64,000 nt of DNA from a bacterium 1XD42-54 (GTDB lineage Bacteria > Bacillota > Clostridia > Lachnospirales > Lachnospiraceae). Each line of letters begins with the position of its first letter. The first letter of the stretch is position 1. Under the pieces are notes generated by a model. The model searched no databases and was not told the DNA's origin. It was given only the letters and a program-made list of their open reading frames with translations. The DNA lies in assembly GCA_003612585.1 (NCBI GenBank), contig RAZH01000004.1, positions 62,001 to 126,000 of the forward strand, read 5' to 3'. Positions 13,121 through 64,000 of the stretch are shown here, one piece after another. The position numbers were made by a program, and so were the translations under genes.

Positions 13121-14098
13121 TTAATTTCTCCATGCAATCTGCTGCGTTTTTTCCAGAGGATATTCGAGAAGGCAGCTCTGATCAAGGTCAACCCAACGCA
13201 GACATACTGCATTGATTTGATTGTTATAGTATGTTTTGTAGTAATTGATGCCTTCATCACAATCCATACAGCAGGAATAAGTTGTTGTAAGACATTTTTT
13301 GTCCTGATTATAAACACTGCCCCGCACCATAGATACATTGTCTAAAATATGAAAAAATTGTGCGACACTGCTCTCTTCATCACTTTCACAGGAAGAATTC
13401 ATTTTCAGAAAGGCCGCTTTGACAAAACGGGAAGCCGGAGAAAAGTCTCCAGGCAGACCGATTCCACCAAACCCCTGTCCAAACGGGCACAAATCGAGTG
13501 CAGTACTGAAACAATTTTCCGGATATCCGGAGCTGATGGCAAGATATTGACGGAGATTGAGCATTTGAAAACCGAAAGGCGGATTATTTGTCATAACGCC
13601 GACCGGGTTTTCATAAACCTGCATCCCATCCTTGGTACATTCCAATACAATAGAATCGTTCCGGTCTGCGATATGCCAGTGCAGCGGTGACAGGGGAATA
13701 TCTTCCCGAAACGGTATGTCAATCAGATGCATCTCTTTGATTTGTTCGCGAATTTCAGCTACACTGCTGCAACGCCCGAGCAGCCAGGGGGCCAGCTCAA
13801 ATGGAGAAATATTATTTTTAAAAGGTTCTTCTTTTTTCGGATAGTAAGCATTGTCTGGAAAGTTCAAACCTGCAATACAGACGCCCTTTTCATTCATGGC
13901 ATCTGCGTATAAAGGATAACCGTCAATAACAGAAGCCATACCAATCATTGCATAATGACTGTGCAGAACACCTGCTTTGCGAAAGACAAACGGAAAATGT
14001 CGCGGCGTAATGACAACCCGTTCATTAAATGAATATTCGAGATCAAGATTTCGGCCAAAATAGAAATGTCCTGTTTGCAATGTAAGACTTGTACACAT
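13121..14098 (-). CDS. Choloylglycine hydrolase family (bile salt hydrolase / penicillin V acylase)
   Basis: This 325-residue N-terminal nucleophile hydrolase begins MCTSLTL, so Cys2 becomes the catalytic residue after methionine removal. Family residues are visible: FGRNLDLEY (Arg16, Asp19), the asparagine of AGLNFPDN, the Asn pair of MTNNPPF and the arginine of SRFVKAAF. Bile salt deconjugation in the cytoplasm is likely for a gut organism, but amidase substrates cannot be told from sequence alone. The start at 14098 has AGGAGG six bases upstream; the frame to 14251 would put 51 residues before the cysteine and block activation. No signal peptide is present. Confidence 0.9.
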   Translation of the reverse strand: MCTSLTLQTGHFYFGRNLDLEYSFNERVVITPRHFPFVFRKAGVLHSHYAMIGMASVIDGYPLYADAMNEKGVCIAGLNFPDNAYYPKKEEPFKNNISPFELAPWLLGRCSSVAEIREQIKEMHLIDIPFREDIPLSPLHWHIADRNDSIVLECTKDGMQVYENPVGVMTNNPPFGFQMLNLRQYLAISSGYPENCFSTALDLCPFGQGFGGIGLPGDFSPASRFVKAAFLKMNSSCESDEESSVAQFFHILDNVSMVRGSVYNQDKKCLTTTYSCCMDCDEGINYYKTYYNNQINAVCLRWVDLDQSCLLEYPLEKTQQIAWRN

Positions 14099-59047: not shown

Positions 59048-60517
59048 TTAGAATATGATGCAGATAATTCTTCCCTTAGATTCATTCACAATTTTTTTCA
59101 TCGTATCCTGAAGGCGCTGCTGACTTTCTTCACCAATTGAGGAAAGTTTTGCCTGAATCCCGTCTTCTACCATCTGTTCAATAGATTTTCCAAAAATCAG
59201 CGTGTTCCAGGCTCCTTCTTCAGAATTTTCATTCTCCCGCATGTAATTAATCAGATCTTCGGCCTGAGATTCACTCCCCACAATCGGTGCGATTTCAGTC
59301 TCAATATCCGCACGGATCAGATGAATCGAGGGTGATGTAGCTTTGATCTTTACGCCATATTTATTTCCCTGTCGGATGACCACCGGCTCATCCATCTGAA
59401 TTTCTTCTTTCAGCGGCGTGATCACGCCATAACCGGTCTGTCTCACTGCATTTACTGCGCTGGCTACTGCTTCATATTCTTTTTTCAGGGCTGACATCTC
59501 CCTGACGATGGAAATCAGCTTGTATTCGCTTGCTATTTCCGTCCCTGTCATCTCGCTCAGCACCTGATAATACAGTGAATCCTGCATCTGGATATCAATC
59601 TCTGCATTTCCGTTTGACAGGTCGACCGCTTCAAGCTTTGCTTTTTTGATAAATTCGCTGTTTACGCCGAGCGAGTCCGCATAAATATCCCGTACCGTAT
59701 GAAGCTTTTGCATTGCATTCTTTGCAGCTGCAAATAGATCCTGTTTCAGCCAATGGCCATTTTCCAGTGTTTCCGTCCACTTGGGAATCTGAAATACAAC
59801 CCTGGTAAGCGGAAATTCCAGCAAAAATTCTTCAAATACAGTCTGAATTTCTTTTGTTCCAATCTGTTCACAGTTCAGGATCATACTGGAAACGCCATAT
59901 GTATCATTCAGATACGCAGATGCCGCCCGTGCTTCTTCACTGTAAGGCTTTGCGGAATTCAAAATCACAAGAAACGGTTTCCCGAGCTGCTGAAGCTGTG
60001 TAATCGCTTCTTTTTCTGCCTCAAGAAAACTTTCCCTTGGAAGGTCTCCGAAGCTTCCATCCGTAGTAATTACAATCCCCACGGTTGCATGATCTGTAAT
60101 TACTTTCTGTGTTCCCATTCTGGCTGCCTCGCCAAACGCCATAGGCTGTTCCTGCCATGGTGTTTTGACCATACGTGGTACACCATTCTCTTCTGTTCCC
60201 TCGGCTCCCGGCACAAGAAATCCGACACAGTCCACCATTCGTAATTTCATAACGGTGCCATCCCCTATTGCAATCTGTGCGGCTTCTCTCGGAATAAATT
60301 TGGGTTCTACTGTCGTCACTGTCTTTCCGGTTGCACTGGCAGGCATCTCATCTTTTGCCCGGTCATGTTCCTGTCCTTCAAGCTCCGGCAGTACCAAATG
60401 CTCTACTACTTTTCTCACAAAGGTAGATTTCCCTGTCCGCACAGGGCCTACGATGCCCACGTAAATATCGCCGCCTGTCCTCGTCTGAATATCCTTGTAT
60501 AAATCAAATTTTTCCAT
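59048..60517 (-). CDS. spoIVA: Spore coat morphogenetic ATPase SpoIVA
   Basis: This 489-residue protein forms the basement layer of the spore coat by ATP-driven polymerisation at the outer forespore membrane. The Walker A motif GPVRTGKST is at 24-32, TVEPKFIPREAAQIAIGDG and VDCVGFLVPGAEG follow, and the C-terminal end IIF is the normal hydrophobic tail. The length matches Bacillus (492). The ATG at 60517 is used; the TTG at 60520 is only its upstream codon. AGGGGG stands before the ATG and lies inside a perfect hairpin. Expression under sigma-E is expected. Confidence 0.96.
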   Translation of the reverse strand: MEKFDLYKDIQTRTGGDIYVGIVGPVRTGKSTFVRKVVEHLVLPELEGQEHDRAKDEMPASATGKTVTTVEPKFIPREAAQIAIGDGTVMKLRMVDCVGFLVPGAEGTEENGVPRMVKTPWQEQPMAFGEAARMGTQKVITDHATVGIVITTDGSFGDLPRESFLEAEKEAITQLQQLGKPFLVILNSAKPYSEEARAASAYLNDTYGVSSMILNCEQIGTKEIQTVFEEFLLEFPLTRVVFQIPKWTETLENGHWLKQDLFAAAKNAMQKLHTVRDIYADSLGVNSEFIKKAKLEAVDLSNGNAEIDIQMQDSLYYQVLSEMTGTEIASEYKLISIVREMSALKKEYEAVASAVNAVRQTGYGVITPLKEEIQMDEPVVIRQGNKYGVKIKATSPSIHLIRADIETEIAPIVGSESQAEDLINYMRENENSEEGAWNTLIFGKSIEQMVEDGIQAKLSSIGEESQQRLQDTMKKIVNESKGRIICIIF

Positions 60518-60524
60518 CAAAAGA

Positions 60525-60559
60525 CCCCCTGCATATACTGGTTAAATATATGCAGGGGG
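60525..60559 (-). promoter_or_regulatory. Perfect 13-bp hairpin over the spoIVA ribosome-binding site
   Basis: CCCCCTGCATATA (60525-60537 on the plus strand) pairs with TATATGCAGGGGG (60547-60559) around a 9-nt loop. The GGGGG of one arm is the Shine-Dalgarno of spoIVA, seven bases from the ATG, so folding would hide it. The loop and the stem hold no T run, so it is not a normal terminator. Confidence 0.75.
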
Positions 60560-60640
60560 AATGGACCTCAGAACGCTTTTAAAGAAATTTCTTCAATCAT
60601 ATGAAAACGAAGACATTTTTGCCTGTATGGTAGCTTGCTT

Positions 60641-60696
60641 TCTAAAATGAAAAGGCGTAGCCTTTCTTTGCATTGCGGACTGCAAAAGGCTACGCC
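60641..60696 (-). terminator. Strong terminator closing the cobalamin riboswitch transcript
   Basis: GGCGTAGCC (60688-60696, minus strand) pairs with GGCTACGCC (60654-60662), with inner TTGCA/TGCAA pairs in the loop, and is followed by TTTTCATTTT. This is a canonical intrinsic terminator that no coding gene precedes on that strand. Confidence 0.88.
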
Positions 60697-61090
60697 GGTC
60701 GTACAGATCAGCTTGCGGAACGTCATCTGTACGCAGCTCCGAAGGCTTACTTTTATAAAAAGCTGATGCCAGCCAGAGCACAAGGAGGTATGTTTGTGTA
60801 TATCTCCATTGCCTTGAGACAACATTCCATTTTTTCTTTGTCTGACTAACCCAATACAGACAACCGGCAGCCAGCCGGTGCGGAGTGTTTTGCTTTACTC
60901 GGAAGCACTTCTCTCATATCAAGCAGGTTTCCTGGCTCACAGATCATCGCCTGCTTCTCCTTCTCGCGCTCATTGGGTACGCAATGGACTTTGAAGCTCA
61001 CTCCCTGTATACAGTGACCGGATCGCTCAGGCATCGCACCTGATTCCCTTTTCAGATAAACTGCACTTGATACGGCAATTTCTCATTACA
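60654..61090 (-). ncRNA. Candidate noncoding transcript under a cobalamin riboswitch
   Basis: From the promoter at 61098 the transcript would run through the aptamer, then about 260 nt with no convincing ORF, to the terminator at 60654. Within it are stem ACCGGC/GCCGGT near 60870-60880 and the 9-bp perfect hairpin CGTACAGAT/ATCTGTACG (60700-60733). The frames of 85 and 62 residues overlap these stems, have poor starts and match no family that I know. A B12-controlled small RNA is the interesting reading; the wreck of a lost B12 gene is the plain one. Confidence 0.4.
60917..61072 (-). promoter_or_regulatory. Cobalamin riboswitch aptamer
   Basis: On the minus strand the P1 arms TATCAAG (61066-61072) and CTTGATA (60917-60923) pair perfectly. 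Between them lie AAGGGAATCAGGTGCGATGC, then CACTGTATACAGGGAG, and finally the B12 box GAGCCAGGAAACCTGC. These match the conserved core of the AdoCbl/MeCbl riboswitch in order and spacing. The aptamer lies 18 nt after the predicted transcription start. No B12 synthesis or uptake gene follows on this strand before the terminator. Confidence 0.88.
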
Positions 61091-61097
61091 CGCTAAA

Positions 61098-61126
61098 AAT
61101 ATAGCACGGTTTCTGAAAATCGTCAA
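61098..61126 (-). promoter_or_regulatory. Promoter of the cobalamin riboswitch transcript
   Basis: TTGACG (61121-61126) and TATATT (61098-61103) are 17 bp apart on the minus strand. It lies only 45 bp after the folD stop, so the riboswitch has its own strong promoter independent of folD. Confidence 0.78.
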
Positions 61127-61171: not shown

Positions 61172-62026
61172 TTACAGTCCTGCTTTTTTTGCAGCTGCAT
61201 CTACTACATGGCTTACAAGTACAGAAGTCGTAACACTGCCTACGCCACCCGGAACCGGTGTGATTGCATCTACAATCGGTTCTACCGCAGCGTAATCCAC
61301 ATCGCCGCAAAGCTTGCCCTCTGCGTTAACGTTGATACCTACATCAATGACCACCTGACCAGGTTTCACGTACTCAGCGCCAACTACGCCTGCACGGCCT
61401 GCGGCAACGATGATGATATCTGCCTCTTTTGCAACTGACGGCATATCTACTGTTCTTGTATGACAAACAGTAACGGTCGCATTTTTCTTGATCAGCATCA
61501 TGGCTGCCGGTTTCCCTACTACAAGACTGCGGCCAATTACAACCGCTTTCTTTCCGGTACAGTCGATTTCATAGTGATCAAGAATTTCCATACAAGCCTG
61601 AGGTGTGCATGGCGGGAAACCAATTGCCTTTCCAGTAAATACACCGGACATGGAACCGTCTGTCATACAGTCTACGTCCTTTGCCGGATCAAGCGCATTC
61701 TCAATCACGCTCTGATCCAGGTGCTTCGGAAGCGGACGGAACAGAAGTACGCCGTGAATTGCGTCGTTCTTGTTTACATCATCAATAACTTTCAGAAGCT
61801 CTTCCTGAGAAACATCACCCGGAAGAAGAATTTTTTCACATGCAACACCGAGTGTTTCACAGCGTTTTGTAGCGCCTCTCTCATAAGAAATATCACTTTC
61901 ATTTTCTCCGACACGAATGATTCCAAGCGTCGGTTTGATTCCTTTTGCCTCAACCTCTGCTACCTTTGCTTTGATTCTTTCGTTCAAAGCAGCGGTAACC
62001 TCTTTACCAAGTAACTGTTTTGCCAT
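61172..62026 (-). CDS. folD: Methylenetetrahydrofolate dehydrogenase / methenyl cyclohydrolase FolD
   Basis: This 284-residue bifunctional enzyme makes and reduces methenyl-tetrahydrofolate in the methyl branch of the Wood-Ljungdahl pathway. The N-terminal active-site block is GVLLFRPLPKHLDQ, a near relative of the usual LPLPxH motif, and PCTPQACMEIL and VVIGRSLVVGKPAAMML are the NADP-fold signatures. SD GGAG precedes the ATG at 62026. It stands 44 bp after fchA, which encodes a further cyclohydrolase. Confidence 0.96.
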   Translation of the reverse strand: MAKQLLGKEVTAALNERIKAKVAEVEAKGIKPTLGIIRVGENESDISYERGATKRCETLGVACEKILLPGDVSQEELLKVIDDVNKNDAIHGVLLFRPLPKHLDQSVIENALDPAKDVDCMTDGSMSGVFTGKAIGFPPCTPQACMEILDHYEIDCTGKKAVVIGRSLVVGKPAAMMLIKKNATVTVCHTRTVDMPSVAKEADIIIVAAGRAGVVGAEYVKPGQVVIDVGINVNAEGKLCGDVDYAAVEPIVDAITPVPGGVGSVTTSVLVSHVVDAAAKKAGL

Positions 62027-62070
62027 TGTTTTGCTCCTTTCATCCGCGGTCATCCAAATCCGCAGTTTCT

Positions 62071-62700
62071 CTATTTCAGACGTCCAAGTACGCTCTCAAA
62101 AATTTCATCAGCCATCGGCGGATATTTCGCCAGCATTGCATCCGCTTTTGCATTCAGCTCTTCTGCATATTCTCTGTTTGCCATGGATTTTGTATTAATA
62201 TAAACATTCAGACTGGCTCCCATCAGAGCTGCCTTGCAAAATGCAGCGCCCACGCCTGCATCACTGATTGCTAACGCAGAACCCTTTGCGGCAAACTCTT
62301 TGATCAGTTCGATTGCCTCACAGCATTTCTCCATGATCTCCATCGGAACAGAGCATGCATCCTTCAGAACAATCTCCATCACACGAGCTTTCTCTGCCTT
62401 TTCTTCTTCCGTTGCCCTCGGCATTCCGTATGCCTTGGAAAGCGGCTCAAATACTTCCGCATCACGCTCTACCAGGGTCAAAAGCTCTTCCTGAAGCTTA
62501 TCGCATTTTGCCTTCAGTTCATACATCTCTGCTTCAACATCAGCGTACTTCTTCTTGCCAACGGTCAGGCTTCCCACCATATTTCCAAGCGCGGTGCCCA
62601 CTGCGCCAACCAGTGCCGATGCGCCGCCGCCGCCCGGAACCGGAGCCTTAGAAGCAAGTACTTCAACAAATTCATTACATGGTACTGTTGAAAATCCCAT
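62071..62700 (-). CDS. fchA: Methenyltetrahydrofolate cyclohydrolase / formiminocyclodeaminase FchA
   Basis: This 209-residue protein belongs to the cyclodeaminase/cyclohydrolase family (PF04961). LASKAPVPGGGGASALVGAV is the conserved N-terminal loop, and AISDAGVGAAFCKAALMGAS is a second signature. In acetogens it hydrolyses methenyl- to formyl-tetrahydrofolate or the reverse, next to FolD. AAGGAG precedes the ATG. The DUF3786 gene lies upstream, separated by a 193-bp gap that holds a perfect 21-bp inverted repeat. Confidence 0.92.
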   Translation of the reverse strand: MGFSTVPCNEFVEVLASKAPVPGGGGASALVGAVGTALGNMVGSLTVGKKKYADVEAEMYELKAKCDKLQEELLTLVERDAEVFEPLSKAYGMPRATEEEKAEKARVMEIVLKDACSVPMEIMEKCCEAIELIKEFAAKGSALAISDAGVGAAFCKAALMGASLNVYINTKSMANREYAEELNAKADAMLAKYPPMADEIFESVLGRLK

Positions 62701-62893: not shown

Positions 62894-63529
62894 TCACACA
62901 CTCTTCATTGTCCCAATCACCACATCGCAGGCGACAACAAGATCTTCCGCGTGAAAAGCTGCCGGGAAATTGTCGCTGAACAGAATCTGAGAAGACGGCG
63001 GAAATTCTTCGTCTCCACCCCATATCTGAAACCGAATAAAAAATCCGTCAAACAGCTCAACCTCATATCCGGCATCTCCGGCCTTGATGGGCTTTGCATG
63101 CATTTTCTCAAACGCAGAACAAAATGCATCAATTCTACTCCCGTAGGAGAATGCCAGCCGCGCCATACACCGACCGCTGAACTGTCTGTAGTACACTTCT
63201 CCCCACGGAACCTCGCGATAGGTCAGAAACTTTCCTGTTCCGGGAACCTGGCAGCCGTGGGTCAGAAAACGTATCATCAGAATCTGCGCCGCCGTAATCG
63301 AAAGTAACGGACAAAAACCATCCTCCTCCTGCGTCCGGACAACGGAAAATTCAGGAAAAGAAACTTCATACTCTTTTCCAAGAAAACGGACAAGAAAGCA
63401 CTTTTTTTCTTCCAGATAAGGAAATCCCGTACGCCTGGAAATCTCAGAAGGATTCATGCTCCGGTATTCTTCTTTGTAGTGTTCAAAGGGGACGCGTTCC
63501 TTGTTGTCCTTTTCGTATTCGATATTCAT
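62894..63529 (-). CDS. DUF3786 protein, Wood-Ljungdahl-associated
   Basis: This 211-residue protein belongs to DUF3786, often found next to acetyl-CoA synthase and corrinoid genes in acetogens and other anaerobes. FPYLEEKKCFLVRFLGKEY, QILMIRFLTHG and FFIRFQIWGGDEEFPPSSQI are visible blocks; HGCQVPG and a few other cysteines recur. The role is unknown; corrinoid or nickel-enzyme maturation is a guess from neighbourhood. AAGGAGAC precedes the ATG. It follows the AcsV-like gene by 42 bp. Confidence 0.85.
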   Translation of the reverse strand: MNIEYEKDNKERVPFEHYKEEYRSMNPSEISRRTGFPYLEEKKCFLVRFLGKEYEVSFPEFSVVRTQEEDGFCPLLSITAAQILMIRFLTHGCQVPGTGKFLTYREVPWGEVYYRQFSGRCMARLAFSYGSRIDAFCSAFEKMHAKPIKAGDAGYEVELFDGFFIRFQIWGGDEEFPPSSQILFSDNFPAAFHAEDLVVACDVVIGTMKSV

Positions 63530-63571: not shown

Positions 63572-64000
63572 TTATTTCATTTCCAATGAGGGAAATAATC
63601 CTGCATCCGTATGCGGCAAGAAACAGCAAGCCACAAATTCATCCATATACGTCGGCTCATTGCTGAGCTCCAGATACGTCATATTGTGAGCAACCTCAGC
63701 CACCTTTTCCTCTGCCGAGACAGAATACAGCATCGTATAAGCACCGGACAGGGATGAATTTCCAATATATAAAAACTTTTCCAACTCAATATCCGGGAAC
63801 ATACCTATGCTCACTGCATTTTTCATATTGATACCACTTCCGATTCCGCCCGCAACAAGCACACGATCAATCATACTCACGTCGAAATCAAGCGATTGCA
63901 GCATCACACGGATTGCTGAGAAAATAGCGCCTTTTGCACGGATAAAGTTATCAATATCCACCTCGGTCAGCTCAATATCCTTAACCGATGCCGCTTCTTC
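63572..64000 (-). CDS. AcsV-like ASKHA corrinoid-activation protein (DUF4445), 5' part beyond the window
   Basis: The frame is open from 64000 to the stop at 63572; 142 residues of the C-terminus are visible. NFIRAKGAIFSAIRVMLQS and VAGGIGSGINMKNAVSIGMF are conserved in the RACE/AcsV family, ATP-driven reactivators that reduce the cobalt of the corrinoid iron-sulphur protein of the Wood-Ljungdahl pathway. DKVLVAGG-type MIDRVLVAGG is the adenosine motif of the ASKHA fold. It is cut by the edge. The N-terminal 2Fe-2S domain should lie beyond it. Confidence 0.87.
   Translation of the reverse strand, partial: EEAASVKDIELTEVDIDNFIRAKGAIFSAIRVMLQSLDFDVSMIDRVLVAGGIGSGINMKNAVSIGMFPDIELEKFLYIGNSSLSGAYTMLYSVSAEEKVAEVAHNMTYLELSNEPTYMDEFVACCFLPHTDAGLFPSLEMK

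What the first reader, a model, noticed from the sequence alone, without database searches (positions are those of the whole stretch)
60641..61126. Orphan cobalamin riboswitch with its own promoter and terminator but no coding gene
Seen: a 17-bp-spaced promoter, a complete cobalamin aptamer (60917-61072) with perfect P1 arms and B12 box, about 260 nt without a credible ORF, a 9-bp hairpin and a strong terminator. Known: cobalamin riboswitches normally control B12 synthesis, transport or B12-independent isozymes, and in a few Firmicutes (Rli55/EutX-type) they control small RNAs that titrate a regulator. Inference: this is either a B12-gated small RNA next to spoIVA and the Wood-Ljungdahl genes, or the stub of a lost gene. 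Position beside a corrinoid pathway makes the first more tempting.
Basis: partly seen in the sequence, partly recalled or inferred. Interest (0 to 1): 0.75.

Follow-up and report, generated by a model that had tools for sequence, protein, structure and literature searches.

The report
B12-sensing small RNA near acetogenesis genes
A vitamin-B12 sensor in a gut bacterium heads not a gene but a conserved small RNA, and a strongly conserved stretch of that RNA matches the start signals of genes for a B12-carrying acetogenesis protein, so it probably lowers those genes when B12 is scarce.

Summary
A complete cobalamin aptamer (RF00174, 95 bits) lies at 61085-60905 (-), after a promoter and before an intrinsic terminator, with no gene between. 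It is not the stub of a lost gene: the RNA after the aptamer is conserved in 42 of 47 genomes of the genus and was not convincingly found outside it (limited sensitivity). The body looks non-coding and has two helices valid in all 26 aligned sequences. Its segment UACCUCCUUGUG is a perfect 12-nt complement of the Shine-Dalgarno region of acsD, a corrinoid-protein subunit gene in the Wood-Ljungdahl cluster that ends just upstream. The matching acsD flank occurs in 37 of 40 genus genomes, against 2 of 28 outside. Some lineages show two-sided changes that keep pairing; others show mismatches. Best reading: a B12-gated trans-acting sRNA that lowers AcsD, and often AcsC, translation when corrinoid is scarce. 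Transcription, B12 response and repression are untested. The logic resembles AspocR and Rli55/EutX; body, target and pathway differ. New variant of a known kind.

The parts
61098..61126 (-). promoter: TTGACG (61126-61121), 17 nt, TATATT (61103-61098), TG before the second hexamer
   Evidence: comparable promoter matched in 31 of 41 sequences of relatives
60905..61085 (-). cobalamin riboswitch aptamer (RF00174), complete
   Evidence: 95 bits, E 2.2e-22, model 1-189/189
60829..60904 (-). linker after the aptamer: a conserved GCUU..AAGC hairpin region, then hairpins of variable sequence (one at 60879-60863); no conserved intrinsic terminator recognised here
60700..60828 (-). conserved sRNA body
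   Evidence: alignment A2 and model R1; 42 of 47 genus genomes
60817..60828 (-). 5' strand of the 12-bp helix (GGAAUGUUGUCU)
   Evidence: pairs with 60728-60717 in 26 of 26 rows at all 12 positions
60779..60790 (-). proposed seed UACCUCCUUGUG, complementary to the acsD Shine-Dalgarno region
60717..60728 (-). 3' strand of the 12-bp helix (AGAUGACGUUCC); eight of its bases lie in the loop of the hairpin below (possible pseudoknot), four in its stem (competition)
60700..60733 (-). hairpin CGUACAGAU-loop-AUCUGUACG, loop holds UUCCGCAA
60644..60696 (-). intrinsic terminator: 12-bp stem, inner hairpin with loop GUCCGCAA, T-run
   Evidence: T-run in 30 of 30 transcripts
61172..62053 (-). folD, last gene of the Wood-Ljungdahl cluster upstream
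   Evidence: FolD family; scores below the equivalog cut-offs
62071..62700 (-). fchA, methenyltetrahydrofolate cyclohydrolase
   Evidence: 204.7 bits, cut-off 275
62894..63529 (-). DUF3786 protein
63572..64000 (-). 3' end of acsV (corrinoid activation protein); acsE, acsC, acsD, acsB, cooS lie beyond the window at C29:127.6-136 kb
59048..60520 (-). spoIVA, downstream neighbour, beyond the terminator
   Evidence: TIGR02836

Best explanation
The unit encodes a B12-responsive, trans-acting small regulatory RNA of about 450 nt. SHOWN: complete cobalamin aptamer, promoter-like and terminator sequences, genus-wide conservation of the non-coding body, two conserved helices, and complementarity of its segment UACCUCCUUGUG to the Shine-Dalgarno (SD) region of acsD and, in many species, acsC (the two subunits of the corrinoid iron-sulfur protein). 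INFERRED: when corrinoid is scarce the riboswitch lets the sRNA be made or become active, as cobalamin riboswitches usually switch off with ligand; the seed then covers the acsD/acsC SD and lowers translation of a protein that would be useless without its cofactor. How ligand binding is passed on (early termination, processing or refolding) is not resolved; I found no conserved terminator in the linker.
For: Body in 42 of 47 genus genomes, one match each. Sequences of 12-nt complement CACAAGGAGGTA in 47 genomes: 49 sites, of which 25 are the sRNA itself, 9 are acsD and 15 others; of six of these others inspected one is cooS of the same cluster. In the window genome the only exact site besides the sRNA is acsD. 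Of 74 start regions in C29:62001-139000, acsD and acsC rank second and third by duplex energy. Flank [CT]A[CT][AG]AGGAGG: acsD 37 of 40 in the genus, 2 of 28 outside; acsC 20 of 40 against 1 of 28. Using each genome's own sRNA, contiguous pairing with acsD is at least 10 in 18 of 18 genomes (mean 10.7; acsC 9.3, acsB 7.0, acsE 6.7, acsV 5.8) and 8-14 in the 38. Two-sided changes keep pairing in G017 (A-U), G019 and G022 (U-A), G018 and G020 (U-A, and A-U in G020); acsC position 5 is paired in 36 of 38, as G-C in 13 and A-U in 11. The sRNA follows the cluster in most species; in G041 and G023 it lies beside cobalamin synthesis genes instead.
Against: No expression, ligand or repression data. 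The core AAGGAGG pairs with CCUCCUU in any strong SD, so only 3-5 flanking bases carry the signal. Own-versus-other seed permutation is weak: p 0.06 for acsD, 0.005 for acsC, and not corrected for relatedness; the genus-versus-outgroup contrast could rest on few events. Mismatches: acsD position 2 in 6 of 38, position 3 in 4, position 4 in 3, and downstream position 1 in 15. acsC pairs 8 or fewer in many genomes. spoIVA leaders also score well (mean 9.7, range 6-13, n 18), as does fchA in some. In one search a choloylglycine hydrolase-family gene ranks first. The seed is not predicted to be clearly open: mean unpaired 0.39 for CCUCC against 0.35 for the whole. CAYAAGGAGG is not enriched in the genome (22 sites, 37 for the reversed pattern). 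The sRNA also occurs in 3 of 6 genomes with neither AcsB nor AcsD detected, though these are 78-90% complete.
Confidence: 0.55

Rival explanations
1. B12-gated protein sponge: the three hairpins that present CCGCAA in their loops bind and titrate an RNA-binding protein, as Rli55 and EutX titrate EutV.
For: Similar loop motifs recur: CUCCGCAA in the variable stem of many species, UUCCGCAA in the 34-nt hairpin, UCCGCAA in the terminator loop. One ANTAR protein exists in the genome.
Against: The window's own variable stem lacks the motif. The window transcript holds no ANTAR-type hexaloop hairpin; per transcript 13 of 30 have none, 10 one, 5 two, 2 three (the A1/G4 rule is recalled). The motif would not explain the acsD match.
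Confidence: 0.15
2. Trans-acting anti-SD sRNA with other or many targets; acsD and acsC are partly coincidental. UACCUCCUU mimics the 16S rRNA anti-SD and could pair with many strong SDs.
For: ACCUCCUU equals the usual 16S anti-SD (recalled). Other start regions score well: choloylglycine hydrolase, cooS, fchA, spoIVA.
Against: acsD is the most consistent of the 13 cluster and neighbour genes compared, and its flank differs in outgroups.
Confidence: 0.2
3. Cis element: a long B12-regulated leader of the downstream gene spoIVA.
For: spoIVA is downstream in 17 of 20 stretches.
Against: A strong terminator ends the RNA (30 of 30). Other genes intervene in G011, G005, G028, G007, G046, and G041, G043, G023 have no spoIVA nearby. 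No known B12 link of spoIVA (recalled).
Confidence: 0.04
4. Remnant of a B12-controlled gene, or a small protein gene.
For: Open frames of up to 85 aa occur by chance on the transcript strand.
Against: Body conserved without frame: spacer lengths spread over all residues modulo 3 in 41 sequences; longest sense frames vary from about 10 to 79 aa.
Confidence: 0.03

Closest known systems
AspocR (Listeria B12 riboswitch-controlled antisense RNA to pocR)
   Same: Cobalamin riboswitch at the head of a non-coding RNA that acts by base pairing in trans and is thought to block translation initiation without B12 (passages of review PMC8079631).
   Different: AspocR is antisense to its neighbour over a long stretch and B12 terminates it early; here the pairing is a short SD-directed seed to genes several kb upstream, the body is a compact structured RNA, and no early terminator was recognised.
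Rli55 / EutX (B12 riboswitch-controlled sRNAs that titrate EutV)
   Same: B12 riboswitch plus stand-alone sRNA that restrains a B12-dependent pathway when B12 is absent (passages of PMC7602753).
   Different: Their effector part is an ANTAR binding site; none recognised in the window transcript. Pathway here is Wood-Ljungdahl, not ethanolamine.
LhrC family sRNAs (Listeria)
   Same: sRNAs that pair directly with the ribosome binding site to inhibit translation (passages of PMC8079631).
   Different: No riboswitch, other sequences and targets, multicopy; here single copy and headed by an aptamer.
Ordinary cobalamin riboswitches of this genome (L002, L003)
   Same: Same Rfam family.
   Different: Those two precede what I read as ABC-transporter substrate-binding genes (translations, no family search).

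Membership tests
Cobalamin riboswitch RF00174 | covariance-model score over the gathering threshold | tested here: met
   95 bits against 31.5
Cobalamin riboswitch RF00174 | binds cobalamin | not testable with these tools
   needs in-line probing or binding assay
B12 riboswitch-controlled sRNA (AspocR/Rli55/EutX kind) | riboswitch heads a conserved non-coding transcript with its own promoter and terminator | tested here: met
   (sequence only)
B12 riboswitch-controlled sRNA (AspocR/Rli55/EutX kind) | B12 changes the amount of full-length RNA | not testable with these tools
   needs Northern blot or term-seq with and without B12
Rli55/EutX | ANTAR binding site in the effector part | tested here: not met
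   none in the window transcript; 13 of 30 transcripts none, no conserved pair noted (criterion recalled)
AspocR | antisense to an adjacent regulator gene | tested here: not met
   antisense strand frames are not consistently present among relatives; neighbours are folD and spoIVA
SD-directed trans-acting sRNA | conserved complementarity to the ribosome binding site of a distant gene | tested here: met
   acsD and partly acsC, with the mismatching lineages listed there
SD-directed trans-acting sRNA | changes translation of that gene | not testable with these tools
   needs reporter assay
Any Rfam family for the sRNA body | match to 60500-60925 | tested here: not met
   only BtsR1 at 16.3 bits (gathering 66), E 1.1, and that in the spoIVA leader

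The most novel reading that the evidence does not exclude
One RNA senses corrinoid and directly silences the corrinoid iron-sulfur protein, coupling vitamin B12 supply to acetogenesis in a genus of gut Lachnospiraceae; its pseudoknotted body with repeated CCGCAA loops is a new RNA family that also binds a second, unknown partner.
Probability: 0.25. Interest if true: 0.85.

Novelty: new variant of a known kind. Interest (0 to 1): 0.72.

Why it matters
Few riboswitches are known to control sRNAs instead of genes. If true, this adds a third B12-controlled regulatory RNA design and the first that I know of aimed at the Wood-Ljungdahl pathway (my searches and 77 of an open-access library found no report; subscription journals and preprints are not covered). 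It would tie B12 exchange in the gut to acetate formation and gives a directly testable seed-target pair.

Tried and rejected
Remnant gene or small protein: rejected by conservation without frame. ANTAR sponge: no consistent hexaloop pattern. Second contact through UUGCGG in the acsD leader: seen 48 nt upstream in G000 and G037, but within 100 nt upstream in only 3 of 40 genus genomes and 0 of 28 others, so dropped. Sequestering of the seed by the linker loop GGGUA/GGGGAA: looked at by eye, not consistent. Relatives outside the genus: model hits in G058 (27.9 bits, inside a coding gene that I read as a glycosyltransferase, no family search) and in G189, G429, G111 (about 20 bits, no aptamer nearby) judged chance. 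The wide search scored only 8 candidates per genome with strict filters, the follow-up 105 in 33 genomes, so weak relatives could be missed.

Rows left out of counts: the 26-row alignment A1 uses 26 of the 30 loci (three cut by contig ends, one without the 3' part); the outgroup control uses the 28 best of 49 non-genus AcsD hits; one search uses the 38 genomes with both a seed and an acsD leader; one search covers 34 stretches from 25 or fewer genomes per gene.

Full report
The aptamer is real. One Rfam family matches the window at the gathering threshold: RF00174 at 61085-60905 (-), 95 bits, full length. A promoter-like site precedes it and a strong terminator ends the transcript at about 60644. 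The genome carries three such aptamers; the other two precede what I read as ABC-transporter binding-protein genes.

It is conserved as a unit. The 486-nt sequence finds full-length or near full-length relatives in the genus. A covariance model of the 129-nt body (R1) hits 42 of 47 genus genomes, once each, and 24 of the 25 that are at least 90% complete and at most 5% contaminated. In 34 of 34 body sequences a B12-box-like AGGAAACC lies upstream, and Rfam confirmed the aptamer beside the body in every body-bearing relative that I gave it: L004 and L005 and seven of eight loci, the eighth being L040, which is a chance hit without a body. Outside the genus 397 family genomes gave no convincing hit (two belong to the genus, one hit lies in a coding gene), nor did 28 AcsD-bearing outgroup genomes; both searches are filtered. 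Two of the four folD-spoIVA loci (L006, L007) carry neither aptamer nor body, so the place is not universal.

Context. In 16 of 20 stretches the unit lies between folD or fchA and spoIVA; in one more spoIVA follows but the upstream side was not seen; in G043, G023 and G041 it lies elsewhere. Beside it in G041 and G023 are cobalamin synthesis genes (CbiG, CbiJ, corrin methylases). Other genes stand between terminator and spoIVA in G011, G005, G028, G007 and G046. The gene cluster upstream is a Wood-Ljungdahl cluster: cooS, acsB, acsD, acsC, acsE, acsV, a DUF3786 protein, fchA, folD.

Anatomy of the body. In 26 aligned sequences (A1) the invariant blocks are GGAATGTT[G/A]TCTC, GGCAA, TACAC, TACCTCCTT, GTACAGA and TTCCGCA; one further genome (G016) has AACCTCCTT. 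RNAalifold proposed, and a count confirmed, a 12-bp helix 60828-60817/60728-60717 paired in 26 of 26 rows at all 12 positions, with one-sided changes only. The 9-bp hairpin 60733-60700 overlaps it: eight bases of the helix lie in its loop, four in its stem, so a pseudoknot or a switch is possible. These are the only helices of 7 bp or more valid in all rows (12 and 7 bp); in 60 column shuffles the longest was 4. The terminator shows two-sided changes at many pairs. Spacer lengths are not conserved modulo 3.

Target. UACCUCCUU suggests SD pairing. Of 74 start regions on C29:62001-139000, a choloylglycine hydrolase-family gene with a bulged duplex came first, acsD second and acsC third. acsD reads CACAAGGAGGTA, the exact complement of UACCUCCUUGUG. 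In 47 genomes that 12-mer occurs 49 times: 25 in the sRNA itself, 9 at acsD, 15 elsewhere; the reversed control pattern occurs 30 times (the assignment is my comparison with the positions). Of the 15, six were inspected and one is cooS in G019.

Control outside the genus. The SD core AAGGAGG is shared, but the flank [CT]A[CT][AG]AGGAGG is found at acsD in 37 of 40 genus genomes and 2 of 28 outside, at acsC in 20 of 40 and 1 of 28. Mean contiguous pairing with the window seed is 11.1 against 8.0 for acsD and 9.8 against 7.3 for acsC (Mann-Whitney p 1e-10 and 2e-7, not corrected for relatedness). The three genus exceptions at acsD (G017, G018, G020) are lineages whose sRNA changed too: AACAAGG with CCUUGUU, AUCAAGG with CCUUGAG or CCUUGAU; G019 and G022 have UACAAGG with CCUUGUA. 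That these are independent events is inference; no tree was built.

Results against. Seed permutation among genomes gives p 0.06 for acsD and 0.005 for acsC. Mismatches occur: position 2 in 6 of 38, position 3 in 4, position 4 in 3. spoIVA leaders average 9.7 and fchA 8.9 in pairing. The seed is predicted only slightly more open than average (0.39 against 0.35). Of 61 control SDs with an AGGAGG core, 7 reach 11 or more: 2 are acsD and acsC of the window genome, 3 are antisense to the sRNA itself, 2 are fchA. Co-occurrence: AcsB or AcsD was found in 41 of 47 genomes, the sRNA in 39 of those 41 and in 3 of the other 6 (Fisher p 0.011); physical linkage and incomplete assemblies can explain it.

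Mechanism. Cobalamin riboswitches as a rule switch expression off with ligand (established knowledge; for AspocR, Rli55 and EutX see the passages). By that rule the sRNA would act when corrinoid is low and cover the acsD and often the acsC SD. Shown: sequence conservation and complementarity. Inferred: transcription, direction, repression. Not resolved: how ligand binding is relayed, and what the repeated CCGCAA loops do.

Literature. Searches combining the riboswitch with Lachnospiraceae, Wood-Ljungdahl, acsD, orphan riboswitch, spoIVA or Clostridia returned no report of this RNA (listings). Two surveys of new bacterial RNAs (PMC11109978, PMC8632094) do not mention cobalamin, Lachnospir-, spoIVA or Wood-Ljungdahl in their main text (term search only). 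PMC8079631 and PMC7602753 were seen as passages only.

Noticed in passing
window 60525-60559 (-): A 15-bp hairpin directly before spoIVA whose 3' arm (GCAGGGGG) may itself be the ribosome binding site; related sequence precedes spoIVA in several relatives.
   Followed up: no
window 13121-14098 (-): Choloylglycine hydrolase-family gene (bile-salt hydrolase type) whose start region gave the strongest, bulged duplex with the sRNA segment.
   Followed up: partly
sRNA hairpin loops, window 60733-60700 and 60696-60644: CCGCAA recurs in two or three hairpin loops across the genus; unexplained.
   Followed up: partly
L040 (G058:C8) around 1501-1622: About 26 nt of same-sense similarity between the 34-nt hairpin and a coding gene of another genus; probably chance.
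   Followed up: partly
L024 1-129 (G043): A second cobalamin aptamer, cut by the end of the stretch, about 1.4 kb from the sRNA's own aptamer.
   Followed up: no
G000:C11:168980-169129: The genome's single ANTAR-domain match, 190-aa frame; its RNA targets are unknown.
   Followed up: no
acsD leaders, L089-L128: Many species have a stem-loop just upstream of the acsD SD, followed by a YRTGTAAACAC-like stretch.
   Followed up: no
L006, L007: Two relatives whose folD-spoIVA gap lacks both the aptamer and the sRNA.
   Followed up: no
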